Below, in pieces: positions 29,136 through 50,437 of a DNA stretch of 64,000 nt. Below the pieces are notes generated by a model. That model saw only the letters and a list, made by a program, of their open reading frames with translations, was not told the origin of the DNA and ran no database searches. Both the position numbers and the translations under genes were made by a program. This stretch comes from Terriglobia bacterium (GTDB lineage: Bacteria > Acidobacteriota > Terriglobia > Bryobacterales > Bryobacteraceae), in NCBI GenBank assembly GCA_020073345.1, contig JAIQFI010000029.1, positions 62,001-126,000 on the forward strand. The letters run 5' to 3'. Positions within the stretch are counted from its first letter, which is position 1. Each line of letters starts with the position of its first letter.

Positions 29136-29212
29136 TGGTGCGCCCGGCATGACTCGAACATGCGACCTTCTGGTTCGTAGCCAGACGCTCTATCCAACTG
29201 AGCTACGGGCGC
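29136..29212 (-). tRNA. tRNA-Arg (anticodon ACG)
   Basis: All arms are present on the minus strand: acceptor GCGCCCG/CGGGCGC, D-arm GCTCAGTTGGATAGAGC, anticodon stem TCTGG/CCAGA with loop CTACGAA (ACG), variable AGGTC, T-arm GCATGTTCGAGTCATGC, and an encoded CCA. It decodes CGN codons after A34-to-inosine editing. Its 5' half lies in a 46-bp sequence repeated at 50342-50387. The DNA upstream of the gene now belongs to the inserted element, so its promoter may be element-supplied. Confidence 0.95.
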
Positions 29213-29216
29213 GCGC
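29171..29216. repeat. attL-type core: 46-bp repeat covering the tRNA-Arg 5' half
   Basis: Identical over 46 bp to 50342-50387, starting TGGTTCGTAGCCAGACGCTC and ending ACGGGCGCGCGC. It covers the anticodon loop to the tRNA 5' end plus four upstream bases. The bases outside both ends differ between copies, which fixes the limits. Confidence 0.9.
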
Positions 29217-29340
29217 TTTCAATCACTTGCAGACCAGCGCTCAAATTTAGAGCATCTGGTTGTGGAACGTTGAAGCTCGTCGGTCGTGGTCTTCACGCTA
29301 CTCGTCTGACCTCGTCCCACAGTGTCAGCCTATCACAGCC

Positions 29341-30153
29341 GTGGACCAATTCACAGAGTTCCTCAAGGAGCGACGCTATCTTCTGAACGTCTCACCAGCG
29401 ACTATCGTGTACTACGAGTGCGCGTTCAAAGCGTGGCAGAAACACGGGAACGGAGATCCCAAGACCTGGATTGTCAACATGCGGCAGGCGGGCATTTCGC
29501 CCGTCTCGTGCAACACCTACATTTGCGCTCTTAACGCCTTTTGGAAGTGGGCCGGGGAGCCGCATCACCTGAGGTATCTCAAAGAGGAGGAAAAAGCGTT
29601 GGCGACCTTAAGCGCTGACCAAGTTCAACGCATTGTCCGCTTCAGGCCCAAGGGGTGCAACCTCTCACGAGCGCATCTACTGGCCCTCCTGCTGTTGGAC
29701 ACTGGCTTGCGCTTCGCAGAAGCTCTCAATCTGCGCTGGGAGGACATTGACCTTGAGAGCCTGCTGGTGAAGGTGGTCGGTAAGGGCGGGAAGCATCGTG
29801 TCGTACCAATTTCATTTGAGGGCCGGAAAGCGCTGTTCAAGTGGAAACAGCAGAGTAAATTCGATCATGTCTTTGCCACCAGGAACGGTACACTACCAAC
29901 CCAGCGCAATGTTGGCCGGGACTTCGCGCTGCTGGGGGAGCGGGCAGGCATTCAGGGTGTGAGATTCTCACCCCACACGTTCAGGCACACCTTCGCCGTG
30001 AGCTACCTGCGGGCTGGCGGCAACGTGCTGTACCTCCAGCGCATCCTTGGCCACAGCACTCTAGAGATGACCAGCAGGTATACGCGCAGCTTAGGGACGG
30101 AGGACCTTCAGGCGGTACATGATCGGTTGTCGCTGTTGAGTAGGAGGTGCTGA
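29341..30153 (+). CDS. Tyrosine recombinase/integrase (tRNA-proximal)
   Basis: Site-specific DNA recombinase, probably the integrase of the element. Seen: SAM-like core-binding domain (DQFTEFLKERRYLLNVSPAT to NAFWKWAG), then the catalytic domain with Arg in LDTGLRFAEALNLRW, Lys in VVGKGGKHRVVPIS, HTFRHTFAVSYLRAGG (HxxR), LGHSTLEMTSRYTRS with the final His and nucleophile Tyr. All six residues are present. The GTG at 29341 is chosen because the core-binding domain begins there; the frame is open to a TTG at 29260, but those residues look noncoding. It starts 125 bp from the tRNA-side repeat and reads inward. Confidence 0.88.
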   Translation: MDQFTEFLKERRYLLNVSPATIVYYECAFKAWQKHGNGDPKTWIVNMRQAGISPVSCNTYICALNAFWKWAGEPHHLRYLKEEEKALATLSADQVQRIVRFRPKGCNLSRAHLLALLLLDTGLRFAEALNLRWEDIDLESLLVKVVGKGGKHRVVPISFEGRKALFKWKQQSKFDHVFATRNGTLPTQRNVGRDFALLGERAGIQGVRFSPHTFRHTFAVSYLRAGGNVLYLQRILGHSTLEMTSRYTRSLGTEDLQAVHDRLSLLSRRC

Positions 30154-30671
30154 GCCTTTCGCACGCTTCGTGGGGCATTTTCTCACCCGGCGGCCGCCCT
30201 CGAACATGGCGACAACCATTCCGCGAGGTTTTTCGGGGGCTGTCGATGTGGAAGACGCTGCGCGGAACAACCCCACGCCTCTCGCACTTGTGAGTCTGTG
30301 TTTGCGTGTCAAAGACTCAGCAGGATGTGCTGTGTTTTCAATGCGCGAAAAAAAAGGCGTCTGCGATTTAACGCGACACCCCGCCGATGTGCCTTGGATG
30401 TGCTTCATTTTATTGAGCGCGAGTTTGTGATTTCATGTCACAGACTCGACCAGCTAAGTGCTTTATGCACAATGAGTTAGACTTGACGCCGCAGGAACTT
30501 TCTGCTACGATGGTTTCATCGTTTTGATGTCAGGTGGCTCGACGGAGCATGCTGGCATCCCAGCCGGAAGAAGGCCTTTTTCCGGTCATTTGAGCCTGTC
30601 GCAATCTCCACGGTGGAGGTGTGCGCGTGCTCACCCCATAGACCCTAAAACCGAAAGACAGGAGTATACGT
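30154..30671. other. 518-bp intergenic region with two hairpins sharing a half-site
   Basis: No gene is supported. Two inverted repeats carry the same arm: TGAGTCT/AGACTCA (30291-30297, 30313-30319) and AGTTTGTGA/TCACAGACT (30422-30446, 8 of 9 paired). They lie between the integrase and the excisionase-type HTH gene, where binding sites of a recombination directionality factor or of a repressor would be expected. CAGCTAAGTGCTTTA (about 30450) also occurs beside the tRNA at 29114. Confidence 0.45.
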
Positions 30672-30854
30672 GTGCAACAAATTGCTATCGGAGTGAAGGA
30701 GGCGGCCGCGCGCCTTGGCGTAAGCCATTGGGCTGTTCGGCAGTGGATCAAACAGGGGAAGCTGCGCGCCGTGAGGCTCGGCAGGCGGGTCCTCATTGAG
30801 CCAGCGGAGTTGGAGCGCCTTGTGGAACAAGGCAGAACGGAGGTGAAGCAATGA
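30672..30854 (+). CDS. Excisionase-family HTH DNA-binding protein
   Basis: 60-residue single-domain protein. IGVKEAAARLGVSHWAVRQW followed by IKQGKLRAVRLGRRVLIEPA is the winged MerR-like 'helix-turn-helix 17' (excisionase) fold. GTG start with AGGAG 7 bases before. In integrative elements such proteins steer the recombinase toward excision or repress the lytic-type operon; either is plausible here. The stop overlaps the next gene by ATGA, so it is first in a coupled operon. Confidence 0.85.
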   Translation: MQQIAIGVKEAAARLGVSHWAVRQWIKQGKLRAVRLGRRVLIEPAELERLVEQGRTEVKQ

Positions 30855-31030
30855 CGGCCTCCAATGAGAGCGCGATGGCGCTCATGACCGGCCTCGCCGA
30901 GCAAGGCTTCTGGGGTGTCTTGACCCTGAAGTTCCAGCGCGGCCAGATCGTGCACATCACGAAGGAAGAGAGTATTCAGCCAGTACCGAACAATCGGAGG
31001 AACCATGAACAACACGACAAGAGTAACTGA
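30851..31030 (+). CDS. DUF2292-like small protein
   Basis: 59 residues, too short for most gene callers. The core GFWGVLTLKFQRGQIVHITK followed by EESIQP matches the single hairpin-and-strand pattern of the DUF2292 (YezD-like) family, whose function is unknown. Its ATG overlaps the HTH stop (ATGA), and its 3' end overlaps the start of the P-loop gene by 26 bases in another frame; GGAGG within its coding sequence serves that next gene. The tight packing supports it being real. Confidence 0.7.
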   Translation: MTASNESAMALMTGLAEQGFWGVLTLKFQRGQIVHITKEESIQPVPNNRRNHEQHDKSN

Positions 31031-32303
31031 ACCTGGGCTGCATAACACCCAAAATGTGGAGCGCGGGGAAACGACCGTCAGGCGGACCGTCGATCTGGTG
31101 GTAAATCGCTTCTATCCCAACCTCCTCGAACCCGTCCATGCGTGCTTGGCGGTGTTTGGCGCGATGTCACTGAAGGGCCGGACCAAGCCGCTATCGCTTA
31201 TCTTCGAGACAGCTTCCGGCTACGGCAAGACGGCATGTTTGCAGATGGTGTTCCCGACACCGGGATCGCCAGTCAAGAATCACGTTTACCGGAGCGACAA
31301 GTTCTCGCCGAAGTCCTTTGTGACTCACGCGGCGGCCCTCGCATCCAACGAACTCGATGCGCGTGACCTCCTGCCCAGACTCGCAAACAAGGTGCTGGTG
31401 ACTAAAGAGCTTGCGCCGATCTTCCGGGGACGCGAAGAAGAATTGCAGAGCAACTTCTCGGTCCTCATCTCCGTCCTCGACGGCAAGGGGTTCACATCCG
31501 ACAGCGGAATGCGCGGCCAGCGGGGCTATGACACGCCAATTCTGTTTAACTGGCTGGGCGCAACCACGCCCCTACCCCCGACGACGCACCGTATGATGGC
31601 CCAGCTCGGCACGCGATTACTGTTCTACGAAGTTCCCGCCATTGAACCGACGGAAGAACAGCTCATGGACTACGCGGAGAAGGATGATGCCGGAGAAGCT
31701 GAGGTCGAATGCCAGAAAGCTGTTAACTCGTTTCTGGCGGACTTTTTCAGCCGCCACCCCGTCGGGAGCTACCCGGCGGACGACATGCCGATACCCGAGG
31801 AACTGTTGCGGCAAATCGTTCGATGGGCGAAACTCCTGGCCCACGGGCGCGCGGAGATCAAGTTCGAGAAGGTAGGCCCTGACTGGAGGCCCGTCGCCGT
31901 CGGTACGCCTGAAGGCCCGTTCAAGATCGTAAACTACCTGAAAGAAATTGCGAGGGGTCACGCCCTCATACACGACAGGACCGCCGTCAATGAGGCAGAC
32001 CTGGGGCTCGTCGCCGAGGTTGCGCTGTCCTCGCTGCCAGGCCACCTTCGGCCTATCGTGCGGCTACTGCGAAAGCAGGGATTCGCCGAAACGGGGGAGT
32101 GCGCCAAACGCTGCCGCGTGAGCCCACCAACCGTGAGGAACTACTTCAAGGAGCTTGATCTCCTGGGGATCGCGGCCCTTACAGAAGGAAGCCCGGAGTC
32201 CAACCAACCCCACCGACTGGCCCTCAGCCACCAATACGGTTGGATGCGCAACCTTGAAAGCAATGTGTACGTGTCGGTAGGAGGGGAAGAAGTGAGCAGT
32301 TAG
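31005..32303 (+). CDS. P-loop ATPase with C-terminal winged helix, probable replication/helper protein
   Basis: 432 residues. Walker A ASGYGKT at about residues 70-76, after SLIFET; a Walker-B-like strand KVLVTKELAPIF; sensor-like ILFNWLGATTPLPP. The C-terminus has a winged-helix pattern (FAETGECAKRCRVSPPTVRN, YFKELDLLGIAAL). No signal peptide. The layout recalls plasmid/phage helicase or DUF3987-like replication proteins, but no close family is recognised. It forms an operon with the HTH and DUF2292-like genes and ends before a terminator-like hairpin. Confidence 0.7.
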   Translation: MNNTTRVTEPGLHNTQNVERGETTVRRTVDLVVNRFYPNLLEPVHACLAVFGAMSLKGRTKPLSLIFETASGYGKTACLQMVFPTPGSPVKNHVYRSDKFSPKSFVTHAAALASNELDARDLLPRLANKVLVTKELAPIFRGREEELQSNFSVLISVLDGKGFTSDSGMRGQRGYDTPILFNWLGATTPLPPTTHRMMAQLGTRLLFYEVPAIEPTEEQLMDYAEKDDAGEAEVECQKAVNSFLADFFSRHPVGSYPADDMPIPEELLRQIVRWAKLLAHGRAEIKFEKVGPDWRPVAVGTPEGPFKIVNYLKEIARGHALIHDRTAVNEADLGLVAEVALSSLPGHLRPIVRLLRKQGFAETGECAKRCRVSPPTVRNYFKELDLLGIAALTEGSPESNQPHRLALSHQYGWMRNLESNVYVSVGGEEVSS

Positions 32304-32313
32304 GGGGACGAAC

Positions 32314-32343
32314 GCTGGGTGCACCCTGACAGGTGCACCCGGC
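32314..32343 (+). terminator. Terminator-like hairpin
   Basis: GCTGGGTGCACC-ctgaca-GGTGCACCCGGC forms a 12-bp stem with one G-U pair and a 6-base loop, 11 bp after the P-loop gene stop. Only a weak T-run (TTTC) follows, so intrinsic termination may be partial. The perfect inner arms could also be a protein-binding site. Confidence 0.55.
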
Positions 32344-32910
32344 TTTCAAGGTCCCCTTCGTATTGTTGGATGAGTTGGAGAGGGTGTCAGGGCTATTTCG
32401 GGGCAATTTCGGGCGATAATTCCCGCCAAGCGGTGCCACTCAATCCGACTCAGTGCACGTCGATGCGCCTGAGTGCTGGTGCGGGGGCGCGAACGGCGCG
32501 AAATAGGGCGCGAGCGGGCTCCAGGCACCAAAATCGACCTGTTGAGCGTCGGCTAGGCCGAACGGCCCTTCGGGCCTTCCGAAGCGTAAGCGGAGGAAGG
32601 TGGGTGCTCACTCCTTTCGCGCCAGGTCGGCCCAAGCCTGCCCCGGCATTCGTTGGCCTGCCGTGTCTCCAGGCCGGGACGGCCCCCGGCGCTTGCCGCA
32701 CCCGCCCGACCAGCCGTTCCCGCGTGGGGATGGCCTCTTCGGGCCGCGCGCTCCCGTCACAGTTCCGCCATTCATCTTCGACAAGTCCATGTCCAGTGTG
32801 GACGCCGGGACGCGCGTTCTCTCCGCGCTCACGAGAAGCGTACAATGGCTACCGTCCCCTGCCGATGGGGCAGCTAATATGGTGCCCATTTTCCGCCGAT
32901 TAGTGTTCAA
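32344..32910. other. 567-bp GC-rich intergenic region
   Basis: No gene is supported. There is a short hairpin, GGCCCTTCGGGCC (32567-32579), and GC-rich sequence with many CGCG-type repeats. Open frames on both strands are low-complexity Arg/Pro/Ser-rich and have no ribosome site. Confidence 0.35.
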
Positions 32911-34653
32911 ATGCCTGAATGCACTAAGTGCTTCGCCGAGCATAAGGAACTTTTCCTTGGCTCCGTCTGCGCCGATTGCGTCGATAACCTTGACCGGCGA
33001 TGGGCAGCTTGTACAGCGACGGATTGGGTGCTCATTTGCGGGTGGGGAGATCTCATTAGCTATCCGCCTTCGGTAGTCACCTTTTTGGGCGCGCTGCTCG
33101 AAATTCAGGGGTTTGGGGAACACGGTTCTTTTTGCGTCTTTGGGTCTTTTCCTCCTATCGATTCGTTACGCCTACCTAGCCCTGAAGCCGAGCGGTTCAG
33201 CGCAGAGCCGCGAGCGCGAGAAGTGCTCAGCCGCTACATCTACCGCAATACCACGTACGCAGAGATGAAGGCGCATTGGGCGACCATTCCCTTTGTTTCC
33301 GACCCGCCAAGTGACCGAGACATAGGGGGACCGTATCCCGATGATTTGCCACAAATGGGGATCACGACAGGTTGCGGAACGGTTACCGACATTGTTGATC
33401 GGATCATTCGACCAGCGAGGGCAGAGGAGATAACGCTAGCAGAGGCTCTGGAGCGGGACGCCCAGCGGCATCAGGAGAGCGCGAAAATCCTTGCAGGTTG
33501 GGGATTCAATGAGTACGGGAAGGTGCTCGATGTCGTCGTTGAGACACATGCGCAGCAACGGGCTGAGCGGGCTTGGGAAGAGACTAGAGCAAGGTTTGCA
33601 CAGCTAGGCTTGCTCAAAGGATCGCTTTTCGACTACGAGAAAGAAATCCAGGCGTTCTATTCGGAAGACATCCGAGCGCTTCAGAGATTCAAACACGAAC
33701 CCCACTATGTTCAACGCGCCGCCGCAATTCGGAGCCTGTGCGAATGGTCTAAGGAATACGCGGCCAGCGGTGGCCGAATCATGAGCCCGTTCGATGGGTA
33801 CATTCGTGTCCCCGTCACTCACTTAGTACGATTCTCAAAGGTCGGTGATACGGACCCCAGTCCACCGCGCGGCCTATCGCAAGTCGCGGGAATGGCGGAC
33901 CTGAAAGAACAGCTAGCACACGAAGTCATCGGGCCTTTCAAGGACCCCGAACTCTACCGCCGCTACCGTGTGTCGCTGCCGAACGGAATCCTCTTCTACG
34001 GCCCACCCGGCTGCGGCAAGACGTACATCGCACGGAGCTTGGCTGAAGAACTCGGCTGGTCCTTCCAGTACTGCCGTCCATCGGACGTGGCAAGCCCCTA
34101 CATCCACGACACCGTAAGCAGAATCCGCGCCGTCTTCGCCGCCGCTACTGAGAAGGCTCCGTCAATCGTGTTCATTGATGAGTTCGAGGCATTCGTACCG
34201 GCGCGTTCGGAACTCGGCGGCCATCAGCAGTACAAGGCCGAGGAAGTGAATGAGTTTTTGGCGAACCTGGAGGGTTGCGCCGAACGTAAGGTCCTGGTGA
34301 TCGCCGCAACGAACGAACCCGATAAGATCGATCCGGCTGTCCGCCGGAGCGGACGCTTTGACAAGCTGATTTTCATTGGGCCTCCCGACGCCGAGGCTCG
34401 CCGCGCCATGTTGGAGTTTCACCTTCACGACCGGCCAGTAGAGGCTTTGCTCGACGCCGCCGGTATCGCGACGGTTCTCGACGGCTATTCAGCAAGCGAC
34501 ATCAAACTGCTGGTGGATGAAGCCTCCCGCATGGCACTGAAACGGGCCGAGACCATCTCAACCAGCACCTTACTCGCGGCGCTGGAGCGCGTTCCCGCCT
34601 CCATCACTACAGACGACGTGCAGCGGTATTCCGCATTCCGCGCACGCGGCTAA
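32911..34653 (+). CDS. AAA+ ATPase with N-terminal zinc ribbon
   Basis: 580 residues. N-terminal four-Cys zinc site (C4, C7, C20, C23 in ECTKC...CADC), a unique region of about 300 residues with no recognised fold (starts DWVLICGWGDLISYPPSVVT), then an FtsH/Cdc48-class AAA+ domain: Walker A GPPGCGKT at about 364-371, Walker B IVFIDEFEAF, sensor 1 VLVIAATNEP and arginine-finger region VRRSGRFDKLIF. Proteins of this class remodel or unfold partners. No protease or membrane segment is attached. Within a mobile element it could be a defence or maintenance factor, but that is inference. Confidence 0.82.
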   Translation: MPECTKCFAEHKELFLGSVCADCVDNLDRRWAACTATDWVLICGWGDLISYPPSVVTFLGALLEIQGFGEHGSFCVFGSFPPIDSLRLPSPEAERFSAEPRAREVLSRYIYRNTTYAEMKAHWATIPFVSDPPSDRDIGGPYPDDLPQMGITTGCGTVTDIVDRIIRPARAEEITLAEALERDAQRHQESAKILAGWGFNEYGKVLDVVVETHAQQRAERAWEETRARFAQLGLLKGSLFDYEKEIQAFYSEDIRALQRFKHEPHYVQRAAAIRSLCEWSKEYAASGGRIMSPFDGYIRVPVTHLVRFSKVGDTDPSPPRGLSQVAGMADLKEQLAHEVIGPFKDPELYRRYRVSLPNGILFYGPPGCGKTYIARSLAEELGWSFQYCRPSDVASPYIHDTVSRIRAVFAAATEKAPSIVFIDEFEAFVPARSELGGHQQYKAEEVNEFLANLEGCAERKVLVIAATNEPDKIDPAVRRSGRFDKLIFIGPPDAEARRAMLEFHLHDRPVEALLDAAGIATVLDGYSASDIKLLVDEASRMALKRAETISTSTLLAALERVPASITTDDVQRYSAFRARG

Positions 34654-34666
34654 CCGCGACCGCCTA

Positions 34667-34924
34667 CTAAGCGGCTTTCGCCTTCCGCGCCGCCCACTTC
34701 TTCCGCTGCGCCGCAGCCATACGCTTTCGCGTGGCGGCACTGAAGCGCCTCCCATTCGGAACAGTTGATGTAGCGAGGCTGGCGTGGTCAATTGTTGATG
34801 CCATTCCCACTTTGGTGGGCGGCCTCTGCGCTTGCCCATGATTCACGTAGACGGCGGGCAATGCGGACTCTGCACCCACTTCGGGGAGACGCATCTTGGA
34901 AGGCGATGATAACGCTCCGCGCAT
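34667..34924 (-). CDS. Small basic protein with AAAQxKKWAA tail
   Basis: Short frame whose C-terminus, FSAATRKRMAAAQRKKWAAR, is a Lys/Arg/Ala helix very similar to the tail of the small protein at 39993-40103. Such tails look nucleic-acid binding. The start is uncertain: ATG at 34924 gives 85 residues, ATG at 34804 gives 45, and the latter covers the conserved part. It converges on the AAA+ gene. Function unknown. Confidence 0.5.
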   Translation of the reverse strand: MRGALSSPSKMRLPEVGAESALPAVYVNHGQAQRPPTKVGMASTIDHASLATSTVPNGRRFSAATRKRMAAAQRKKWAARKAKAA

Positions 34925-34928
34925 TGGG

Positions 34929-36044
34929 TTAGTTCAAGCCCGAGATGCGCGGCTTTGTGGGATCGACTTCCAGCTCGGCATTCACCGTGCGATCATCTCC
35001 CGCCGCCAGCTCGATTTTCCGCTCCCACGGTCTATAACCCGATTTCCTAACCGTGATCGTGTGCGTCCCGGCCTGTAACCGCTTTAGGTCAGCGGTTGGC
35101 GTGCTGCCCCAATAGTTGCCGTCCACGTCAATCTCGGCATTGGAAGGCGTCGAGGTGAAACGAACCGTAATGCCACTGACAGATGAGGAGGGGGAAACGA
35201 TCTCAGGTTTGGCGATCACGACTTTCGCGTCCGTTGTTCGGGCGGCAGGCGTGGGTTTCGCAACCGCGACATCAGCGTCAGACCGCTCATTCTGTGCCTT
35301 AGAGGCTTTCGTCATCGCCCGAATTACCTCATCGGAAAGGCCGGTGTTCTTTAAGTCGATCATCGACTGGGTGTCGAGTCGGTACGAACCGCTTGAGGCC
35401 CCAATCCTCCAAAGGATCAGGTCATCGGAATAGCCTGCCTTTTTGAGGGCGATAATGTTTTCATTATTCAATGCTGCTCCTTGGTCATTCGACGTGGTTG
35501 CTTTTGCAGGTGTTGAGCTAGTCGTTACCCTCGGCGCTGCGCCCTTCAGTGCGTAGGCTCTATCGGTGAAAACATCAAACGCCATACCCTTGTTAAAAAC
35601 GGTGTCCTTACCCTTCCGAAGCAGAACAAAAGGAGCTGCTGGCCAAAACACGACAGCGACGCCAGCGGTAATGATGCCGGTGCTAACCGCGTGGCTGCCG
35701 CCTTCCTTCTTCACTACCGAATACCGAACCGGTATTTTGCCGCCCTCCGGCAGCACTATGGTGTCAATGGAAAAATCGAGCTTACCCGTCCGACCCATAC
35801 GTCGCTTGCCAACAGCCTGCACTACGGTGCCGTTCACGACAGCGTCATGCGGGATGACGACCACATCATCGATTCTCACATCGTCGCTGACGGCGAACTG
35901 CACAGGCTGGCCTTCCTCTGCGGTAGCTGAAGAAAGCTGCTGCTCAAGTCGCACTCGTACTTTCGTCGCCTCTGGAATATCCTGAGCCACGGTGACTTCC
36001 AGGATAGATATGACCGAAATCACACTTAAGCACCGTCGAACCAT
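34929..36044 (-). CDS. Secreted PEGA-domain protein
   Basis: Exported (signal VRRCLSVISVISILEVTVAQ). The N-terminal half is an uncharacterised beta-rich domain (VRVRLEQQLSSATAEEGQPV). It is followed by two short helical repeats of the 'IALKKAGYSDDLILWRI' / 'MIDLKNTGLSDEVIRAM' kind often found in bacterial envelope proteins, and a C-terminal PEGA domain (FTSTPSNAEIDVDGNYWGST, then AGTHTITVRKSGYRPWERKI). PEGA domains are usually carbohydrate or cell-envelope associated. ATG at 36044 is chosen for the signal peptide. Confidence 0.75.
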   Translation of the reverse strand: MVRRCLSVISVISILEVTVAQDIPEATKVRVRLEQQLSSATAEEGQPVQFAVSDDVRIDDVVVIPHDAVVNGTVVQAVGKRRMGRTGKLDFSIDTIVLPEGGKIPVRYSVVKKEGGSHAVSTGIITAGVAVVFWPAAPFVLLRKGKDTVFNKGMAFDVFTDRAYALKGAAPRVTTSSTPAKATTSNDQGAALNNENIIALKKAGYSDDLILWRIGASSGSYRLDTQSMIDLKNTGLSDEVIRAMTKASKAQNERSDADVAVAKPTPAARTTDAKVVIAKPEIVSPSSSVSGITVRFTSTPSNAEIDVDGNYWGSTPTADLKRLQAGTHTITVRKSGYRPWERKIELAAGDDRTVNAELEVDPTKPRISGLN

Positions 36045-42970: not shown

Positions 42971-43005
42971 TTTACCGTTGAGCGGTGACGGAGGCGCAAA
43001 AGTGC

Positions 43006-43552: not shown

Positions 43553-43962
43553 GTAGACTCCCGTGCAAACGAGTCGACGAGCCCAAGCCGCGCGGCGGGG
43601 GGCACACGCGGGCGGCCTCGCAGAACCCCCAAAAGAGTAGTGGGTCAAAGTAATCCGACCCACTACCTCGAAGGAAAACCGAGACCGCTCGGAGGAAGAC
43701 AGTCTGGGTTGGGGAACGTGCTCACCCCGGTCTTCTAAAATGGAACGTGAATACTATACCCGCAAAACCAGCGGAGTTCGACTAGGGTTTGCACGAAGAG
43801 AATCTGATTTCCACAGGCTTTCAACAGGTTTCTGCTTCGGACTTGCGGTTTAGAGGCGCGCGCCGGGCGATTCACAAACCCGCTTGTCCGTGGGGGACCA
43901 GCCCGCGCGGTGGCCGGACTCTATGCAGTTGCCATGCCCGAATCCTGGGCGTACTGTAGGGC
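43553..43962. other. 410-bp noncoding region with long hairpin and DnaA-box-like pair
   Basis: GTAGTGGGTC (43637-43646) and GACCCACTAC (43657-43666) form a perfect 10-bp stem with a 10-base loop; no T-run follows. At 43808-43828 TTTCCACAGGCTTTCAACAGG contains two 11-bp-spaced DnaA-box-like sites (TTTCCACA, TTTCAACA; consensus TTATNCACA). The stretch before them has locally AT-richer sequence. An origin, or simply a promoter/terminator region, are both possible. Confidence 0.4.
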
Positions 43963-44199
43963 GTGGCCGTGCAACCCAAAACTCATCTGCCGCCATGCGA
44001 CGAGAAGCAACAGTTACGCATTCTCTATAAGGTGGCAGCGAAGAGCTACGCCACCACCGTCAATGACGTGCTCGCCAGTCGGGGCAATACGTCTAAGCAG
44101 GAACATGATCGCGTCCGGGCGCTTATGGCGGAGGCTAGGGACGCCCGCAGCGCAGCCCGCCTAGCACTTCGACAGCACAGTCAGGAACATGGCTGCTGA
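43963..44199 (+). CDS. Small helical protein ending HGC
   Basis: 78 residues from GTG: KSYATTVNDVLASRGNTSKQ, EHDRVRALMAEARDARSAAR, LALRQHSQEHGC. A two-helix pattern ending in HxxEHGC matches a short protein family I have seen repeatedly in acidobacterial genomes; function unknown. No signal peptide. Confidence 0.6.
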   Translation: MAVQPKTHLPPCDEKQQLRILYKVAAKSYATTVNDVLASRGNTSKQEHDRVRALMAEARDARSAARLALRQHSQEHGC

Positions 44200-44235
44200 G
44201 CACTCTTGCTGCTGGCTGCTGCGCGAGCGCTGCTA

Positions 44236-44499
44236 TCAGAGCCGGCCTCGCGCTGAGGCTTCGCTTTGAACTGCACCTCTGGAACCCAGCTCATAGAGGG
44301 GGCGTCTCTCCATCTCCTTCATCACCGTTTCGTTGTTAGCCAACATCACGGCCCGAAGTTCATCAAGGTGTTCGGGCTTCATCCTGGGGATGAACCGAGC
44401 GAGCGCGGCGTCCAGGGTCGAGATGCAGTCCGGGAAACTGAGTTCGCGGTGGAGCAATCGATTCACCGCTCTTGTGGTCTCGCGCTTGTAGACCTTCAC
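44236..44499 (-). CDS. Conserved small acidobacterial protein
   Basis: 87 residues from GTG at 44499: RLLHRELSFPDCISTLDAAL, ARFIPRMKPEHLDELRAVML, ANNETVMKEMERR. This helical sequence is of a type recurrent in acidobacteria, often beside the 'HGC' protein family as here. Function unknown. An ATACT-AGA-AGTAT palindrome (44501-44513) lies directly upstream of the start and may be an operator. Confidence 0.6.
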   Translation of the reverse strand: MKVYKRETTRAVNRLLHRELSFPDCISTLDAALARFIPRMKPEHLDELRAVMLANNETVMKEMERRPLYELGSRGAVQSEASARGRL

Positions 44500-44682
44500 G
44501 ATACTAGAAGTATAGGTCCTGCTGACGGCGGGCTCGCCCCGGACCTGGGATCTAGGCCAGTGCTCTGCGCGGTCAGGCGCGCCATAGCCGTTGCTTGCGT
44601 ACTTCTACAGATGGCGCGTTTACCAGCCAAGTGTCTTCCGGGCTGCGTTGCGCGTATATCCCGCACGGGCTACAATGGCGGC

Positions 44683-45348
44683 GTGCGAAGTAGCATTATC
44701 GTGCTTCTTGTCAGTGCGGCAGCGGTAATGGCTCAAATGATCGGACTTCCTCAGGCTGAAGTAATCCTTGCCGGGACACCCACTGCTCCAGTAGTCATCA
44801 ACAACTCGTCTCATTGGATATTGGCGTACACGTTTGTTGATCAGGACGCGGCGGGACACGTGCGGCCACACACCTATGACATGATCGGCCAGCTCAGAAA
44901 TAACCCGCGAGCCGGGATCGCCCCAGGCGTGAGTTCCTCAGAGGCTCAGTCGCTAGTGCGACCCCAGATCCGCGATGCCAGGGGTGCGCCGCCTCCTCCT
45001 CCGACCCAGGTTTTTCTCGATAGCGTCCTCTTTGACAATGGTGTTCTGGTCGGGCCGGATAGGACCAACAGCTTTGACGCCATCACCGCCCGCTTGCAAG
45101 CGCAAAAAGACGTCAACTTGGCAGTTGAGGCTGGAGCGTGGTCGAAGCTCCAGCAGATCGCTGACGGAGGGAGTGCTGGCGCACCTGCGCTGGCCGGTTC
45201 CGAAATTTACCAGCGTAACTATCGGCAACGGATTGTCATCGCCGCCACGGAAATGCTCCGCGTCCGCGAAAGAACTGGCGACGCAGGGGCGCTCAAGCTC
45301 GCCGCCTCTATGGCGGTGTATCCGACGATCACTCGGGGCCAAAACTAG
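44683..45348 (+). CDS. Secreted hypothetical protein
   Basis: 221 residues from GTG at 44683; signal VRSSIIVLLVSAAAVMAQ. The mature part is partly beta-rich (NSSHWILAYTFVDQDAAGHV), has a Pro-run linker, then a long helical C-terminus (FDAITARLQAQKDVNLAVEA). No family recognised. Confidence 0.55.
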   Translation: MRSSIIVLLVSAAAVMAQMIGLPQAEVILAGTPTAPVVINNSSHWILAYTFVDQDAAGHVRPHTYDMIGQLRNNPRAGIAPGVSSSEAQSLVRPQIRDARGAPPPPPTQVFLDSVLFDNGVLVGPDRTNSFDAITARLQAQKDVNLAVEAGAWSKLQQIADGGSAGAPALAGSEIYQRNYRQRIVIAATEMLRVRERTGDAGALKLAASMAVYPTITRGQN

Positions 45349-45491
45349 CCGGGCGAGGGAGCGGTGTTTACGAGCCAATTGGATGTAACGTCGGCATCCC
45401 GGAGAACTGATCCGAACCGTTCCCGTGTGCTTCCCGTGCGACGATTCCCCTGGGTTCCCACGACACCAAGTAACTGAAGACTGCCCGCACC

Positions 45492-45525
45492 GTTGCAGCG
45501 TGGCAGTGGAAAACGGGAGAGACAC
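45492..45525 (+). repeat. 34-bp intergenic repeat, copy 1
   Basis: Matches 46199-46232 at 30 of 34 positions; the last 18 bases, GGAAAACGGGAGAGACAC, are identical. It lies between a plus-strand and a minus-strand gene. A weaker inverted copy seems to lie near 47100-47135. Possible regulatory or REP-like element. Confidence 0.5.
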
Positions 45526-45565
45526 GCGGGTAGCCGGATAAACTGACGGAAATCTTGCGTGGTGG

Positions 45566-45772
45566 CTACGTTGGATTTAAGAGATGTTCCAGCGCCTGAA
45601 GCAGTTCCGCATCGGTGGATCGACCTACACTGAGGGTTTTCTTGATTCCATCCTCGGAGTAACGCATATCCTCCGGTGGGTTCGAGTCCGTTCGTCCATT
45701 CCACACTTCACGGCCAGTCTCATCATCCACAATCCGAATGCGTGTTCCATTGCGTTCTACTTTTTTCGACAT
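45566..45772 (-). CDS. Hypothetical small protein
   Basis: 68 residues from ATG at 45772 with GAGGGA upstream. Short beta hairpin NGTRIRIVDDETGREVWNGR, then EDGIKKTLSVGRSTDAELLQ and a terminal helix ALEHLLNPT. No family recognised; the ribosome site and charge pattern support it. Confidence 0.5.
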   Translation of the reverse strand: MSKKVERNGTRIRIVDDETGREVWNGRTDSNPPEDMRYSEDGIKKTLSVGRSTDAELLQALEHLLNPT

Positions 45773-45836
45773 GCGCTCCCTCGATAACCCTTTGCTCCCG
45801 CTTGTGAATAGCAAGCCAGGCGACGGAGTACCGCCA

Positions 45837-46067
45837 TCACTGGGCCACTACAGTGACGGTTTGTAGAGGCTTGCTGTCGTAACGATCGCATGCGCAACAA
45901 TATCGAGCGTCCTTGCTCCGGAAGTCCTTGGGGGTGCGGGGATCTTTTCGATCACATTCCAGACATTTCCCGTGCCGCCGACTGCGGCCGGGAGGATAGT
46001 ACTCGCAACGTTTCGTGGCGATCTTGCAGATATCGCAGTATTCTGAAGCGGCTGAAAAAAGTGCCAT
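45837..46067 (-). CDS. Cys-rich zinc-binding small protein
   Basis: 76 residues from ATG at 46067. CDICKIATKRCEYYPPGRSR, HGKCLECDRKDP and DARYCCACDRYD give three CxxC pairs, as in treble-clef or HNH-like zinc folds; a catalytic His pattern for a nuclease is not clear. No signal. Function unknown. Confidence 0.55.
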   Translation of the reverse strand: MALFSAASEYCDICKIATKRCEYYPPGRSRRHGKCLECDRKDPRTPKDFRSKDARYCCACDRYDSKPLQTVTVVAQ

Positions 46068-46198
46068 TAGGGGACTCCACTTTCATGAAAGAGGGTCCCA
46101 GGTTCCTGTGCGGCGGCTCTCGGTTTGTATATCGGCTGAACGGGGCGAAACCAACCTAGGGCAAATAAAATGCCGCAGAACGCAGAGAAGCGGGCCCT

Positions 46199-46232
46199 GT
46201 TGCAGTGTTGCAAGGGAAAACGGGAGAGACAC
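46199..46232 (+). repeat. 34-bp intergenic repeat, copy 2
   Basis: Second copy of the repeat at 45492-45525 (30 of 34 identical), same orientation, 707 bp away, between the Cys-rich gene and the methyltransferase gene 3' end. Confidence 0.5.
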
Positions 46233-46285
46233 ACACTTTAGCCCTACGCGTCCGATAACTTTGACTGCTGTGCGTCCGCTAACGT

Positions 46286-46963
46286 TTAAAGTACCAGAGC
46301 CAATAACGCCGTTTTGCCGGCATTGATTTGATAACGCAGATCAAAACCGCAGCGGTAAGCCATCCCCGCAGCCTGCTCCGGGGAAAACCCCACTCCTACC
46401 CAAGTGTCATCGGGCCTCACGTTGGGAATAACACCGCCCTGTAACTGAAACTTGAACAAGGCGCCCGGGCGCAAAAGCCTGTAAACCTCCCGGACATAGT
46501 TCTCGATGATTTCATAGCTTGGAATGTGCTGGAAGACGTAATTCGAGTAAGCAAAATCAAATTGGAGTTGTGGCACAACGCTAAGATCCAAGCCGTTGTT
46601 TTGATAGATGTGCGCATTGGGAAAACTCTGCAAAGCCGCGCGCGCACACTCGACCATCGCTCCGCTAATGTCAACGGCATGAACTTCCCCGAAAACTCTG
46701 GCTAACGCCCTGGTGACCCGTCCGGCACCGCATCCGATCTCCAGGACGCGCAGTTCCCTAGGGTCCTTGCCTTGGCAAACATTACCCATATCGTTGAGGA
46801 TGTCGCCGCCAATCGCCATCTCACCGGACGCAAAAAAGTCTTCATCCGTCCAGTGGTCTTTGCCCGTGGCTACATAATGGCGGGCGTTCTCGCGTGCGCG
46901 TGCGTCCCAATCGCGCCGCATTTTATCCAGTTGATCCGCGACGGTAATCTTCTCAGACACCAC
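46286..46963 (-). CDS. Class I SAM-dependent methyltransferase
   Basis: 225 residues. Motif I VLEIGCGAGRVTRALA, post-I acidic EVHAVDISGAMVECARA, motif II-like FDFAYSNYVFQHIPSYEIIE and RLLRPGALFKFQL. Rossmann methyltransferase that transfers a methyl group from SAM. Most like generic small-molecule methyltransferases; no DNA-specific (DPPY) motif, so it is not an obvious restriction-modification partner. GTG start at 46963. Confidence 0.82.
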   Translation of the reverse strand: MVSEKITVADQLDKMRRDWDARARENARHYVATGKDHWTDEDFFASGEMAIGGDILNDMGNVCQGKDPRELRVLEIGCGAGRVTRALARVFGEVHAVDISGAMVECARAALQSFPNAHIYQNNGLDLSVVPQLQFDFAYSNYVFQHIPSYEIIENYVREVYRLLRPGALFKFQLQGGVIPNVRPDDTWVGVGFSPEQAAGMAYRCGFDLRYQINAGKTALLALVL

Positions 46964-47273
46964 TTCAGTTTACTCGCGAAGCGCGTACAGGGAAGCCTCG
47001 CCGCGCAAGACTAGCTCCCCCGAAGTTGGTACCTAGGAGATCGACGCCATGCGGTTGACATTAGGGAGATTCCAGCCCCGAAGCGTGAATACCTGCGCCT
47101 CTCCCCAATCTGACTGCAACACTGCAGCACCTCCGGTGGTTGGCCCCGATGGTTCGTGACTGGCCAGTCCTGCACCTTTTCCAAATTTTTTCGGCGCGGG
47201 CCAATTCGCGGTACCGCCCGGCCCGCCAGAGCGCGATTGCTACTTCGATTCGACCCGCCCCCGGCCTTCGGCC
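46964..47273. other. 310-bp stretch without a supported gene
   Basis: Only chance frames. A degenerate inverted copy of the 34-bp repeat is suggested near 47100-47135. Confidence 0.3.
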
Positions 47274-47474
47274 TTAACGCTTCCGCGCTTTGGCTTCCCT
47301 CGCAAGGCGCGCAGCCATGCGTTTCTTTGCGGCAGCGAGCGAGGCCTTCTTTGCGCGCGCGGAGCGCTCTGCGGCCGTCATGTTCTGGGCCGCCGTCTGT
47401 CCGCCGATCTTGCCGTACCGCTTGCCCTCAGCGCTCAGGTATGCCAGTACTTCGGGCGGCATTCGCTTCGCCAT
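47274..47474 (-). CDS. Small basic Lys/Ala-rich protein (KIGG type)
   Basis: 66 residues from ATG at 47474: RYGKIGGQTAAQNMTAAERS, ARAKKASLAAAKKRMAARLA and a basic tail. The 'KIGGxxAAxxMTxxERxxRAKKA' pattern belongs to a short family frequent in acidobacteria; it is nucleic-acid-binding-like and its function is unknown. Confidence 0.6.
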   Translation of the reverse strand: MAKRMPPEVLAYLSAEGKRYGKIGGQTAAQNMTAAERSARAKKASLAAAKKRMAARLAREAKARKR

Positions 47475-47671
47475 GACTCATAGTACCTTAGACCCCTAAG
47501 AGCTGTCAGACTAGGTGCGGATTTCGCTTGCAGCCTAGGGGGGTAAGGTGTATTCTGAGCCTGCTCCTGGTGTTCGATTATTAGAACGAATCGCACACTA
47601 GGGCGAATCGGGACCGCGCAAGGCGCCAACCTGGCACGGCCCCTAAACAACGCGAAAGGTTAAGTTTCACG

Positions 47672-48586
47672 ATGTCTACTTCTGACTCTACCGACAAACG
47701 GGACGTTTACGCTTGCGTGACCTCCCAAATCATCAACGCAATTGAGCGAGGCGTAGGAAACTGGCGGATGCCCTGGCATACCTCGGGGCGCTTCGCGTTC
47801 TCGCCGATCAATGTAACCAGCAAGAAGCCGTACAGGGGTATCAATACGGTTTGCTTGTGGGCCGCTGCGCAAGCCAAAGGATACGAGTCCGGGGAGTGGG
47901 CCACGTACCAACAATGGCAAGATCGGCGCGCGCAGGTTCGCAAGGGCGAGAAGGCCACGCTGGTCGTGTTCTGGAAGTTCGCGAACGATTCCGGCGAGTC
48001 CCAGAGCGATAGCGACACTCCCGCCAGCGGTTCCCGCCTCCTGTTCACAAAGGGCTATAGCGTTTTTAACGCCGCTCAGGTGGACGGCTATGCGCCGAAG
48101 GTGGACACGGATCGGCCGATGCCTGAGCGGATCGAGCAAGCGGAGGCGTTCTTTCGGGGCGCCGGGGCCGACGTACGCTACGGAGGGAATCAGGCGTTCT
48201 ATTCGCCTTCTGGCGACTATGTGCAGATGCCGCCGTTTGCTGCGTTCCGCGATGCGGTCTCGTACTATTCGACGCTGGCGCATGAGCACACGCATTGGAC
48301 AGCCAGCGCGGCGCGCTGCAATCGTGAGCTAGGCAAGCGGTTCGGCGACAATGCGTATGCCGCTGAAGAACTCATTGCGGAACTTGGGGCCGCCTTCACA
48401 TGCGCACACCTTGGATTGAGCACGGAACCGCGCGAGGATCACGCCCAGTATCTTCAGTCCTGGTTGCGCGTTCTGAAGGCTGATAAGCGGGCTATCTTCA
48501 CCGCCGCCAGTAAGGCGCAACAGGCAGCGGATTGGCTGACCGCGCGGGCCGCGCAAACGGCCCCCCAGCTGGAGGTGGCTGCATGA
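47672..48586 (+). CDS. ardC: ArdC-like antirestriction protein
   Basis: 304 residues. The N-terminal ArdC (DUF1738) domain, likely ssDNA-binding, reads VTSQIINAIERGVGNWRMPW, then YRGINTVCLWAAAQAKGYES, WATYQQWQ and RKGEKATLVVFWKF; a C-terminal zincin-like metallopeptidase domain has LAHEHTHWTASAARCNRELG (HExxH) and EELIAELGAAFTC (third ligand region). ArdC proteins protect incoming plasmid DNA from restriction. First gene of a four-gene operon in which each next start overlaps the previous stop as ATGA, ending in a recombinase gene. Confidence 0.87.
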   Translation: MSTSDSTDKRDVYACVTSQIINAIERGVGNWRMPWHTSGRFAFSPINVTSKKPYRGINTVCLWAAAQAKGYESGEWATYQQWQDRRAQVRKGEKATLVVFWKFANDSGESQSDSDTPASGSRLLFTKGYSVFNAAQVDGYAPKVDTDRPMPERIEQAEAFFRGAGADVRYGGNQAFYSPSGDYVQMPPFAAFRDAVSYYSTLAHEHTHWTASAARCNRELGKRFGDNAYAAEELIAELGAAFTCAHLGLSTEPREDHAQYLQSWLRVLKADKRAIFTAASKAQQAADWLTARAAQTAPQLEVAA

Positions 48587-48741
48587 CGCGCCCGGCTCTC
48601 GCGTCCGATCCGACGGCCCGGCCGGTGGCCGTGGTCTGCCTTGCTTGCGCTCAGGGCGATCATGAGCAAGCTCTGGTCAATGAGCGATGCCCATGTCCTT
48701 GCCACTCTTCGCCGAAGGCGGACAGTGAGGTAGCCTTATGA
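48583..48741 (+). CDS. Cys-rich microprotein
   Basis: 52 residues; ATG overlaps the ardC stop (ATGA). VVCLACAQGDHEQALVNERC followed by PCPCH gives a CxxC...CPCxCH cluster, a likely zinc site. Function unknown, but the coupling on both sides (ATGA again at 48738) shows that it belongs to the operon. Confidence 0.6.
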   Translation: MTRPALASDPTARPVAVVCLACAQGDHEQALVNERCPCPCHSSPKADSEVAL

Positions 48742-49235
48742 CCGGCCGCTACAAGATCACGCTCAGCTCATGGCGCACGTGGGAGCCTGAGAAGCGCACC
48801 GTTAAGCGTTGGTCGCTGTTCGTCAATACATGCCGCCTACTCGCACGCGATGGCCTCGATTACCGCGTCACCCTCGCCCTGGACGGCGATGATCCCCACA
48901 TACTGATAACCGCGTCCGGGACCGTCAAGCGCACGGCCAGGCAAACCAGCCTGCGTCACGGGATGATGCCGCCGGTGAAGCGCGAGCAATGCGCCGAGCG
49001 CGCTCTAGAGGCGGAGTGGTTTCTGCCTGAGAACGCCACCAAGCGGAACACCAATACGACGCACTGGCGACGGCGCGGCGCGCGCTATGCCGAGCTGAGC
49101 GCAATGGCCGAAGGCCATCTCCGGGCGGAGCTGGACTACTGGCGCGAGATGGAGCTGTTGAGCGGCCAGCGCCAGCACTTCAAGCCGGGCCTGACGGATG
49201 AGACGGCCTGGGCTGATGATGAGGTGGCGGCATGA
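48738..49235 (+). CDS. Hypothetical protein in ardC-recombinase operon
   Basis: 165 residues, ATGA-coupled at both ends. Basic N-terminus with beta character (RYKITLSSWRTWEPEKRTVK, YRVTLALDGDDPHILITASG) and a helical C-terminus (MAEGHLRAELDYWREMELLS). No family recognised. It could be a DNA-binding accessory of the recombinase; that is inference from position only. Confidence 0.6.
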   Translation: MTGRYKITLSSWRTWEPEKRTVKRWSLFVNTCRLLARDGLDYRVTLALDGDDPHILITASGTVKRTARQTSLRHGMMPPVKREQCAERALEAEWFLPENATKRNTNTTHWRRRGARYAELSAMAEGHLRAELDYWREMELLSGQRQHFKPGLTDETAWADDEVAA

Positions 49236-50209
49236 ATCCCGCCACCGATCTAACGCTGGTTCCCACGAACGGCAAGCGGGCGGACTTGGCTCCGCCCTCC
49301 CTCGACCGTGCACGCGAGTTCGCTCGGCAGAGTAAGGCCGAGAATACCCTGCGCGGCTACCGCGCTGACTGGCGGGACTTCTGCGCGTGGTGCGAGCTGA
49401 ACGGCCAGCGTCCCCTTCCGGCTTCGCCGGAGGCAGTCGCAGCCTACATTGCGGGGTGCGCCGGGCGGCTGAAGGTCGGCAGCATTCAGCGGCGCCTGAA
49501 CGCTATCGCGGAGGCGCACAAGGCCGTAGGCCTTGACTCGCCCACGGCGGCCGGAATCGTGAGGAATACCCTGAAGGGCATCCGGCGCACGCTTGGGACT
49601 GCGGCGGTTCAGAAGGCTCCGGCCTTGACGGCGGACATTCGCGCGATGGTGGAGCGTGCGGACGCGGGCCTGATCGGCGCGCGCGACCGCGCAATAGTAC
49701 TGCTCGGATTCGCGGGCGCATTCCGACGCGCGGAGATCGTAGGTCTCGACGCTGCGGACCTGGGGTTCGGGCGCGACGGCCTGACGGTCACGCTGCAGCG
49801 GTCGAAGACCGACCAGGAGGGAGCGGGGCGCAACGTCGGCATACCGTACGGATCGAATCCTGACACGTGCCCAGTGCGGACTCTTCAGACGTGGCTAGAG
49901 CAGGCCGGGATTGCCGACGGCGCGGTGTTCCGTTCACTCAATCGCCACGGACGGGTGCAGCCGGGCCGCCTCTCACCGGCCGACGTGGCGCGCGTGGTGA
50001 AGAAACTGGCGCAACGCGCAGGGCTGGACGCTGCTAGGTACGCGGGCCACAGTTTGCGCGCCGGGCATGCCACGAGTGCGGCAGCTTCCGGCGCGTCTGA
50101 GCGCTCGATCATGAATCAAACCGGCCATCGGTCAGTGCAGATGGTCCGGCGATACATACGGGAAGGCAATCTGTTCAGGGAGAATAGTGGAGGCAGGTTA
50201 GGTTTGTAG
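49232..50209 (+). CDS. Tyrosine recombinase (right end)
   Basis: 325 residues. The N-terminal core-binding domain (SKAENTLRGYRADWRDFCAW to LNAIAEAHKAVGL) is followed by a catalytic domain with Arg in FAGAFRRAEIVGLD, Lys in TLQRSKTDQEGAG, HSLRAGHATSAAASG (HxxR), TGHRSVQMVRRYIREGNLF with the final His and Tyr; complete. ATGA-coupled to the preceding gene; its stop is 132 bp from the right-hand 46-bp repeat. It belongs to the XerC-like group and is not closely similar to the left recombinase. Confidence 0.88.
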   Translation: MNPATDLTLVPTNGKRADLAPPSLDRAREFARQSKAENTLRGYRADWRDFCAWCELNGQRPLPASPEAVAAYIAGCAGRLKVGSIQRRLNAIAEAHKAVGLDSPTAAGIVRNTLKGIRRTLGTAAVQKAPALTADIRAMVERADAGLIGARDRAIVLLGFAGAFRRAEIVGLDAADLGFGRDGLTVTLQRSKTDQEGAGRNVGIPYGSNPDTCPVRTLQTWLEQAGIADGAVFRSLNRHGRVQPGRLSPADVARVVKKLAQRAGLDAARYAGHSLRAGHATSAAASGASERSIMNQTGHRSVQMVRRYIREGNLFRENSGGRLGL

Positions 50210-50437
50210 ACGCGCGGGCAACGGTAAAGGCCGCACGAGTCGGAGAGCGTGTTTTTGAGCCTCTGGGTGGAGAGATTGACTTATACTCTTTGAAGTATAA
50301 ATCGTTTATAATCAATAAGAAAGGAGAATGGCTTTCTTTTGTGGTTCGTAGCCAGACGCTCTATCCAACTGAGCTACGGGCGCGCGCGGTGAGACTCTTT
50401 GAACTTACCACAGCTTCCGCTCGCCCACCAATCATGA
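50210..50437. other. Right junction region with AT-rich hairpin
   Basis: TTATACT-ctttga-AGTATAA (50281-50300) is a perfect 7-bp stem in an AT-rich stretch just left of the 46-bp repeat, a candidate recombinase arm site or terminator. Right of the repeat, on the minus strand, TTGGTG and TAAGTT spaced by 18 bp look like the tRNA gene's original promoter, now separated from the intact tRNA. Confidence 0.45.
50342..50387. repeat. attR-type core: 46-bp copy of tRNA-Arg 5' half
   Basis: Identical to 29171-29216. It holds only the 5' half of tRNA-Arg (acceptor 5' strand, D-arm, most of the anticodon arm); no T-arm or 3' acceptor follows, so it is not a functional tRNA. Confidence 0.9.

What the first reader, a model, noticed from the sequence alone, without database searches (positions are those of the whole stretch)
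29171..50387. Integrative element uses the 5' half of tRNA-Arg, replacing the tRNA's upstream DNA
A 46-bp perfect direct repeat covers the tRNA 5' half and stops in the anticodon arm. Most tRNA-targeting islands duplicate the 3' half, leaving the native promoter in place. Here the intact tRNA keeps its 3' half on the host side and now has element DNA upstream, while the probable original promoter lies at 50390-50437 next to a dead half-tRNA. The element must therefore supply tRNA expression, and the old promoter may produce a 5' tRNA fragment.
Basis: partly seen in the sequence, partly recalled or inferred. Interest (0 to 1): 0.75.

Follow-up and report, generated by a model that had tools for sequence, protein, structure and literature searches.

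The report
tRNA gene rebuilt by two elements
In a soil acidobacterium, a mobile element has rebuilt the only detected gene for one arginine tRNA from its own copy of the gene's front half, leaving the original start region and its promoter 21 kb away, and what looks like an older element had already replaced the back half.

Summary
A 46-bp perfect repeat (29171-29216 / 50342-50387) covers tRNA-Arg(ACG) positions 1-42 plus 4 bp upstream. Three same-genus genomes have the uninterrupted tRNA joined directly to the homologue of 50388 onward, so 29217-50341 (element B, 21.1 kb) sits on the 5' side and parted the tRNA from its promoter. An extended -10 box (TGNTANNNT) found upstream of 15 of 18 tRNA-Arg(ACG) loci in the genus stayed with the half-tRNA; the intact tRNA lacks it.

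The original 3' half, decayed, lies with its host flank at 26809-26937, beyond a 2.2-kb remnant (A) of a conventional 3'-half element. The working gene is therefore, most likely, a chimera of two elements' att sites.

B's integrase family uses either half: of 21 classified members, 6 are 5' type, 3 duplicate the whole tRNA, 12 are 3' type (9 of the 21 judged from one end only).

5'-half islands are known but rare (Islander: 159 of 3919), so this is a new variant, not a new kind. The element-side promoter was not identified, and whether the old promoter makes a tRNA fragment is untested.

The parts
29136..29212 (-). Intact tRNA-Arg(ACG); 3' half continuous with element A, 5' half continuous with element B
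   Evidence: 77 of 77 identical to the tRNA in G018, G019, G020
29171..29216 (-). att copy at the integrase end: tRNA 5' half (positions 1-42) plus 4 bp
50342..50387 (-). att copy at the far end: displaced original 5' half of the tRNA
50384..50437 (-). Original tRNA promoter region; extended -10 box TGGTAAGTT at 50402-50410
   Evidence: same box at -27 in G018, G019, G020; TGNTANNNT upstream of 15 of 18 genus loci
29217..50341 (.). Element B, 21,125 bp, 5'-half type
   Evidence: repeat ends, three sites without it, length
29341..30153 (+). Tyrosine integrase of B (270 aa from GTG), start faces the tRNA 5' end
   Evidence: PF00589 E 4e-34 (scanned from the upstream TTG at 29260); PHROG 1 integrase; translation; alignments
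29219..29230 (+). Integrase-side att motif TCAATCACTTGC (family form TCAATAACTTAC, 2 mismatches)
29246..29258 (-). Candidate arm-type site CAGATGCTCTAAA, integrase end
   Evidence: CAGANGCTCNAAA occurs only twice in 64 kb
50253..50265 (-). Candidate arm-type site CAGAGGCTCAAAA, far end
49232..50209 (+). Second tyrosine recombinase (325 aa), 132 bp from the far end
   Evidence: PF00589 E 3e-17; plasmid relatives, at most 52.6% identity among the 8 rows listed
47672..48586 (+). ArdC-like antirestriction protein (cargo of B)
   Evidence: PF08401 and PF18818
32911..34653 (+). AAA ATPase, IetA-like (cargo of B)
   Evidence: PF00004; PADLOC IetA E 4e-33, but below the NCBIfam cut-off
26891..26937 (-). 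Displaced, decayed original 3' half of the tRNA; shared core TGGTTCGT at 26930-26937
26809..26890 (.). Original host 3' flank of the tRNA
   Evidence: 26809-26937 is 84% identical to G019 44-172, where it abuts the intact tRNA; 0 of 1000 shuffles
26938..29135 (.). Element A, 2,198 bp, probable remnant of a 3'-half-type element
   Evidence: its tRNA-side end 29077-29135 is homologous to the integrase-bearing element end beside the G005 tRNA-Arg(ACG); no integrase recognised in A itself

Best explanation
Two integrative elements entered the same tRNA-Arg(ACG) gene through the same anticodon-loop core, from opposite sides. Element A was a conventional element. It brought a 3' half, pushed the host's 3' half and 3' flank to 26809-26937, and has since decayed to 2.2 kb. 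Element B brought a 5' half beside its integrase gene, pushed the host's 5' half and native promoter to 50342-50437, and restored a complete tRNA at 29136-29212. Shown: the repeat, the sites without B, the displaced halves on both sides, the homology of both ends of B with a second 5'-type element, and the genus promoter box being on the displaced half. Inferred: that A was an integrative element, that B's integrase does the recombination, that the tRNA is now transcribed from B DNA, and the order A before B (A's displaced half is decayed, B's is perfect). The integrase family can use either half. In most members an arm motif on the integrase side keeps one orientation and a similar place whichever way the near-symmetric anticodon arm is read, so a flip of the tRNA relative to the integrase, or a change of which att arm carries the tRNA mimic, turns a 3'-type element into a 5'-type one.
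For: 46-bp repeat. Sites without B in G018, G019, G020. Host 3' flank plus 3' half at 26809-26937 matches G019. End of A homologous to the end of the G005 3'-type element, which has its own integrase (PF00589) and a 45-nt 3' fragment. Second 5'-type element at tRNA-Arg(ACG) in G182: integrase 60% identical, intact tRNA with its 5' end facing the integrase, 47-bp 5' half 100% identical on another contig. Both att arms homologous between window and G182, 0 of 1000 base shuffles each. CAGANGCTCNAAA once at each end of B and nowhere else in the window, and once at each G182 end. Further 5'-type elements with both ends on one contig: G791 tRNA-Ser and L090 tRNA-Pro. Promoter box in 15 of 18 genus loci and on the displaced half, absent from the intact tRNA.
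Against: No excised circle or junction was seen; the data are draft assemblies. The element-side promoter was not identified: 0 sigma-70-like sites in 29050-29450, but also 0 in the native region 50200-50600. Two other genus loci, G005 and G012, lack the box with no 5' fragment found, so lack of the box alone does not prove replacement; and of the six displaced 5' halves tested in the family only two (window, G791) have the box within 45 nt. In G182 the two ends are on different contigs, and none of 11 relatives' loci of its flank shows a tRNA. G018 is empty only of B: its tRNA 3' side reads by eye like an integrase remnant. The G791 integrase gene is broken by a stop. A has no recognised integrase. 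A second recombinase lies 132 bp from the far end and could be the active one. The att motif has no good match in 5 of 22 rows and a weak one in 3, and its consensus, like the arm pattern, was chosen by eye from the sequences it was then tested on.
Confidence: 0.83

Rival explanations
1. One 23.4-kb element (26938-50341) with a short 8-bp core (TGGTTCGT) split the host tRNA and carries a complete tRNA-Arg of its own, as in tRNA-dependent lysogeny.
For: The two displaced host halves share exactly TGGTTCGT, the split is in the anticodon loop, and phages with about 10-bp cores and their own replacement tRNA exist (PMC10865867). The second recombinase lies 132 bp from the right end.
Against: Arm-type sites and homologous att arms flank the internal tRNA on B's side; the other side matches the end of a separate 3'-type element in G005; G182, G791 and L090 carry 5'-type elements in this integrase family. 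The left displaced half is decayed and the right one perfect, which suggests two events.
Confidence: 0.09
2. B first duplicated the whole tRNA (as in G555, G807, G889) and the far copy later lost its 3' half by a deletion between the ACCA of the anticodon arm and the ACCA of the 3' end.
For: Whole-tRNA duplications exist in the family, and the perfect repeat ends in ACCA (tRNA sense).
Against: In G182 the far arm joins the 5' half at nearly the same position (43 bases against 42) and is homologous to the window's far arm, so the junction looks like an inherited attP feature rather than a local deletion.
Confidence: 0.05
3. Chance or assembly artefact: a pseudo-tRNA fragment with no integration.
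For: Draft genome in 98 contigs.
Against: Three genomes without B, an integrase beside the repeat, arm sites at both ends, independent parallels.
Confidence: 0.01

Closest known systems
tDNA islands with a 5' fragment in Islander (PMC4383910; passages seen)
   Same: Integrase-bearing island between an intact tRNA and a displaced 5' fragment
   Different: Islander lists 159 of 3919 islands with a 5' fragment. Here the same tRNA also has a displaced 3' fragment from another insertion, and the integrase family uses both halves
pTN3-type archaeal integrases (PMC8371274, section 18 read; PMC5495485, passages)
   Same: 5' half used; the restored tRNA is parted from its original promoter
   Different: pTN3 integration splits its integrase gene and the tRNA is said to use the integrase promoter. 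Here the integrase is intact and transcribed away from the tRNA
tRNA-dependent lysogeny (PMC10865867; abstract and passages)
   Same: An apparently single-copy tRNA expressed from element DNA; split in the anticodon loop if A and B are taken as one unit
   Different: There attP and attB share about 10 bp and the phage carries a separate whole tRNA; here B restores the tRNA through a 46-bp half
Conventional 3'-half tRNA islands (e.g. the G005 element, L140)
   Same: Same target gene, anticodon-arm breakpoint
   Different: They keep the native upstream DNA on the intact tRNA; B does not

Membership tests
tRNA-targeted integrative element (genomic island) | Intact tDNA and displaced tDNA fragment in direct orientation bound the element | tested here: met
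tRNA-targeted integrative element (genomic island) | Tyrosine integrase inside | tested here: met
   29341-30153, PF00589
tRNA-targeted integrative element (genomic island) | Site without the element in relatives | tested here: met
   G018, G019, G020 for B
tRNA-targeted integrative element (genomic island) | Excision and transfer | not testable with these tools
   no reads, no excised form seen
5'-fragment island class | Fragment is the 5' end of the tDNA and lies upstream of the intact copy | tested here: met
   fragment positions 1-42
5'-fragment island class | Restored tRNA is no longer beside its native upstream DNA | tested here: met
   native upstream and genus promoter box stay with the half-tRNA
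pTN3-type integration | Integrase gene is split by integration | tested here: not met
   integrase ORF uninterrupted, 270 aa
tRNA-dependent lysogeny | tRNA not reconstructed at either att junction | tested here: not met
   taking B as the element, it is reconstructed at 29136-29212; met only if A plus B are taken as one unit
Conjugative element or prophage | Transfer, relaxase or virion genes in B | tested here: inconclusive
   none recognised among the ORFs scanned; not every ORF was scanned in every library

The most novel reading that the evidence does not exclude
Two-sided capture turns A plus B into one unit (26938-50341) that carries a whole, apparently single-copy tRNA gene and its new promoter between the two halves of the host gene, with an 8-bp common core. 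That is the layout of tRNA-dependent lysogeny, so this would be a natural route to it. In this integrase family the tRNA half used is a switchable trait, and whole-tRNA attP sites may be the step between the 3' and 5' types (G309, G555 and G791 show 3', whole and 5' forms at the same tRNA-Ser with related integrases).
Probability: 0.3. Interest if true: 0.75.

Novelty: new variant of a known kind. Interest (0 to 1): 0.52.

Why it matters
If right, an apparently single-copy tRNA gene has both halves and its expression signals from mobile DNA, so losing the elements imprecisely would cost the host a needed tRNA. It also gives a set of related integrases, most with a shared att motif, that use the 3' half, the 5' half or the whole tRNA. 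That makes it possible to test what fixes the usual 3' bias and how elements come to own the promoter of a host tRNA.

Tried and rejected
A shared 3' flank between G018 and the window's far end (CAAAAGAAA) was considered as a trace of B. It was set aside because the G018 flank reads, by eye, like the end of another integrase gene, and because the far arm of B is shared with G182 instead. The sequence beside the intact tRNA (GCTCTAAA) was considered as its new -10 box. It was judged more likely part of an arm site, because it recurs, with small changes, at the other end in both elements. Promoter consensus scans found nothing beside the window's intact tRNA, its native region or the G182 tRNA, so the tool was not informative there; it did find TTGCCA-18-TATGAT beside the L090 tRNA. 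RNA folding of the half-tRNA transcript gave no signal (z -0.03). The search for G182's empty site matched 23 of 61 genomes, G182 among them, and the 11 relatives' loci scanned show no tRNA.

Literature searches returned no papers, with narrow terms. Searches (20 of 132 papers listed; 15 of 238; 1 of 1; 2 of 2; 10 of 16) listed none whose title or shown abstract start described a two-sided case or an integrase family alternating halves; these are partial listings. One search (tycheposons, 6 listed) was not followed up. Williams 2002 is not held and is cited only through other papers.

Rows dropped: of 16 genome-contig loci I classified L089, L090, L091, L093, L095 and L097; L088 and L092 are the G182 and G199 loci again. 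L098 (partial integrase) was in the motif test but not in the tree. L094, L096 and L099 to L103 were left out (weak or no tRNA fragment beside the integrase, cut contigs or distant integrases); L096 has a 3' fragment. Of 13 viral loci only L070 was classified.
Full report
Observation. The window holds one tRNA, tRNA-Arg(ACG), at 29136-29212 on the minus strand. A 46-bp perfect direct repeat lies at 29171-29216 and 50342-50387; extended to 49 bp it is 98%. It covers tRNA positions 1-42, into the anticodon stem, plus 4 bp upstream.

Sites without B. The right flank (50438-52400) was searched in 61 genomes: the window's own and 60 relatives. In G019 and G020 the whole flank is present, and in G018 its distal part (query 886-1963). 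In these three the complete tRNA-Arg(ACG) abuts the homologue of 50388 onward. BLAST gives the tRNA stretch at 100% over 81 bp (G020) and 84 bp (G018) and 97.8% over 92 bp (G019), with the flank match running from 50339 to 50414 in G018 and further in the others. So 29217-50341 (21,125 bp, element B) is inserted on the 5' side, and DNA from 50388 onward is the tRNA's native upstream. G018 is empty of B only: an 84-aa frame on its tRNA 3' side reads by eye like an integrase C-terminus.

The promoter. In 23 genomes of the genus, 18 gave a tRNA-Arg(ACG) locus at E up to 1e-22. In the 45 nt upstream, an extended -10 box TGNTANNNT is present in 15 of 18, starting between -20 and -32. The three without it are the window's intact tRNA, G012 and G005. 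The window's displaced half has TGGTAAGTT at -27, as in G018, G019 and G020; base shuffles of that stretch have such a box in 2.5% of cases. Against this: no 5' fragment was found in G005 or G012, so absence of the box alone is not proof of replacement, and among six displaced 5' halves in the family only the window and G791 have the box within 45 nt (G182, L090, G035 and L070 do not). The promoter that now drives the intact tRNA was not found, but the same scan also misses the native region. The tRNA seems to be the only ACG gene. Of 10 matches in the own genome, eight have loci: the window tRNA, its 5' half, and six that were typed as Arg-TCG, Arg-CCG, two Val, Met, and no gene at the 3' fragment. 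Two weak matches were not typed. An anticodon-arm pattern occurs once. The genome is 97.5% complete in 98 contigs. That the host depends on this gene is from general knowledge of arginine decoding, not tested.

A second insertion on the other side. The own-genome search also hit window 26884-26937. This is a decayed 3' half (positions 35-77, 93%). Window 26809-26937 matches G019 44-172 at 84%, where that sequence runs straight into the intact tRNA (flank alignment 0 of 1000 base shuffles). So the host's own 3' half and 3' flank are at 26809-26937, and 26938-29135 (2,198 bp, A) is inserted. The end of A beside the tRNA (29077-29135) is homologous to the corresponding end in G005 (0 of 1000 base shuffles). 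There a 3'-type element sits at the same tRNA, with a 411-aa integrase (PF00589 E 4e-19) ending about 20 nt from the tRNA and a 45-nt 3' fragment about 7.3 kb away, identical to G005's own tRNA. The inner part of A matched none of the fetched loci and no integrase was recognised in it, so 'remnant' is an inference. The working tRNA is thus a 3' half continuous with A and a 5' half continuous with B. That A came first is inferred from the decay of its displaced half.

B is one of a family. The integrase at 29341-30153 was searched in 257 genomes of the order (6 with a match at E up to 1e-30) and 396 of the phylum (4 at 1e-40), and a 17-row profile in 399 of the class (11 at 1e-60); the window itself is one of the matches each time. 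Genome contigs gave 16 loci and viral contigs 13. Both att arms are homologous to those of B (0 of 1000 base shuffles each). The pattern CAGANGCTCNAAA, picked by eye from these arms, occurs twice in the 64-kb window, once at each end of B, and once in each of the two G182 end stretches examined.

Twenty-one members were classified. Six are 5' type: window, G182, G791, L090, G035, L070. Three carry the whole tRNA at both ends: G555, G807, G889. Twelve are 3' type. Both ends were seen in 12 of the 21 (window, G182, G791, L090; G555, G807, G889; G309, G783, L097, G233, G344); the other nine are inferred from the integrase end alone. The integrase is on the 5' side of the tRNA in 11 and on the 3' side in 10. 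On the integrase tree the fewest changes are 5 for the 5'/3' state among the 18 rows that have it, 8 if the whole-tRNA state is counted among 21, and 3 for the side among 21; 7 of 18 inner branches are well supported, and no shuffled control was made. The integrases of L097 (frameshift) and G791 and G012 (a stop each) are broken. The motif TCAATAACTTAC lies between the anticodon and the integrase start with at most 2 mismatches in 14 of 22 rows (the 21 plus L098), 29 to 55 nt from the anticodon, in one orientation relative to the integrase whichever way the tRNA runs. L090, L070, G889, G012 and L098 show no good match, and L093, G783 and L097 are weak. The consensus was chosen by eye from these sequences.

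How it most likely works. The near-symmetric anticodon arm can be read in either direction (dyad symmetry of this region as an integrase site is described in PMC8371274). With the integrase-side arm fixed, the orientation of the tRNA and the arm that carries the tRNA mimic decide which half is duplicated. L090 shows an element that brings a consensus-like promoter with its 5' half (TTGCCA-18-TATGAT, 10 of 12), and G791 has TGTTATCTT at -43 on the element side (shuffled frequency 6%). No such site was found for the window or G182.

Comparison with the literature. Islander counts 159 islands with a 5' fragment against 3760 with a 3' fragment (PMC4383910, passages). A review says the restored bacterial tRNA keeps its original promoter with very few exceptions and that pTN3-type integrases are unique in archaea in using the 5' half (PMC8371274, section 18 read). 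A thaumarchaeal survey says 5' recombination is considerably less frequent and reports one case among 39 tRNA integrations (PMC6563490, passages). So the 5' type is known and rare. I saw no description of one tRNA rebuilt from both sides by two elements, nor of an integrase family alternating halves, in the listings of searches; these cover open PMC papers only, and for 20, 58 and 101 only part of the papers found was listed.

Cargo. B carries an AAA ATPase near IetA (far below the NCBIfam cut-off), a PEGA protein and an ArdC-like protein, a Sel1 protein and a methyltransferase, and a second tyrosine recombinase. No virion or conjugation genes were recognised among the ORFs scanned. In 2-kb windows GC reaches 0.66 at 48-50 kb against 0.56-0.62 in the rest of B, so the right end may itself be a later import.

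Verdict. The finding is real and its main reading is right, with one correction that makes it more interesting. It is a new variant of a known, rare kind.

Noticed in passing
47672-50209: ArdC-like gene, a 165-aa ORF and a plasmid-type tyrosine recombinase form a high-GC block (0.66) at the right end of B; relatives of the recombinase occur in 3169 plasmid records, all under 60% identity.
   Followed up: partly
32911-34653: AAA ATPase resembling the antiphage ATPase IetA (PADLOC E 4e-33, below the NCBIfam cut-off), with two ORFs before it: 31005-32303 (weak helix-turn-helix match) and 32319-32903 (nothing recognised).
   Followed up: no
27216-28157: One ORF with an AraC-type helix-turn-helix and a DinB domain, inside the element A remnant.
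   Followed up: no
45487-45525 and 46194-46232: A 39-bp direct repeat at 85% identity inside B; 36636-36670 and 37374-37408 is another, 35 bp at 83%.
   Followed up: no
L064 284-371 and 19024-19111; L158 9099-9175 and 19549-19625; L161 10092-10168 and 19467-19543: Elements of this integrase family that duplicate the whole tRNA (88 of 88, 76 of 77 and 76 of 77 identical), so each end has a complete or nearly identical gene.
   Followed up: partly
L041 2646-2900 (-): In G018 an 84-aa frame on the 3' side of tRNA-Arg(ACG), running into the tRNA, reads by eye like the C-terminus of another integrase; with G005 and element A this makes the 3' side of this tRNA a repeated target in the genus.
   Followed up: partly
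L160 469-1341 (+): The integrase gene of the 5'-type element in G791 is split into two frames by a stop, so that element may be stranded.
   Followed up: partly
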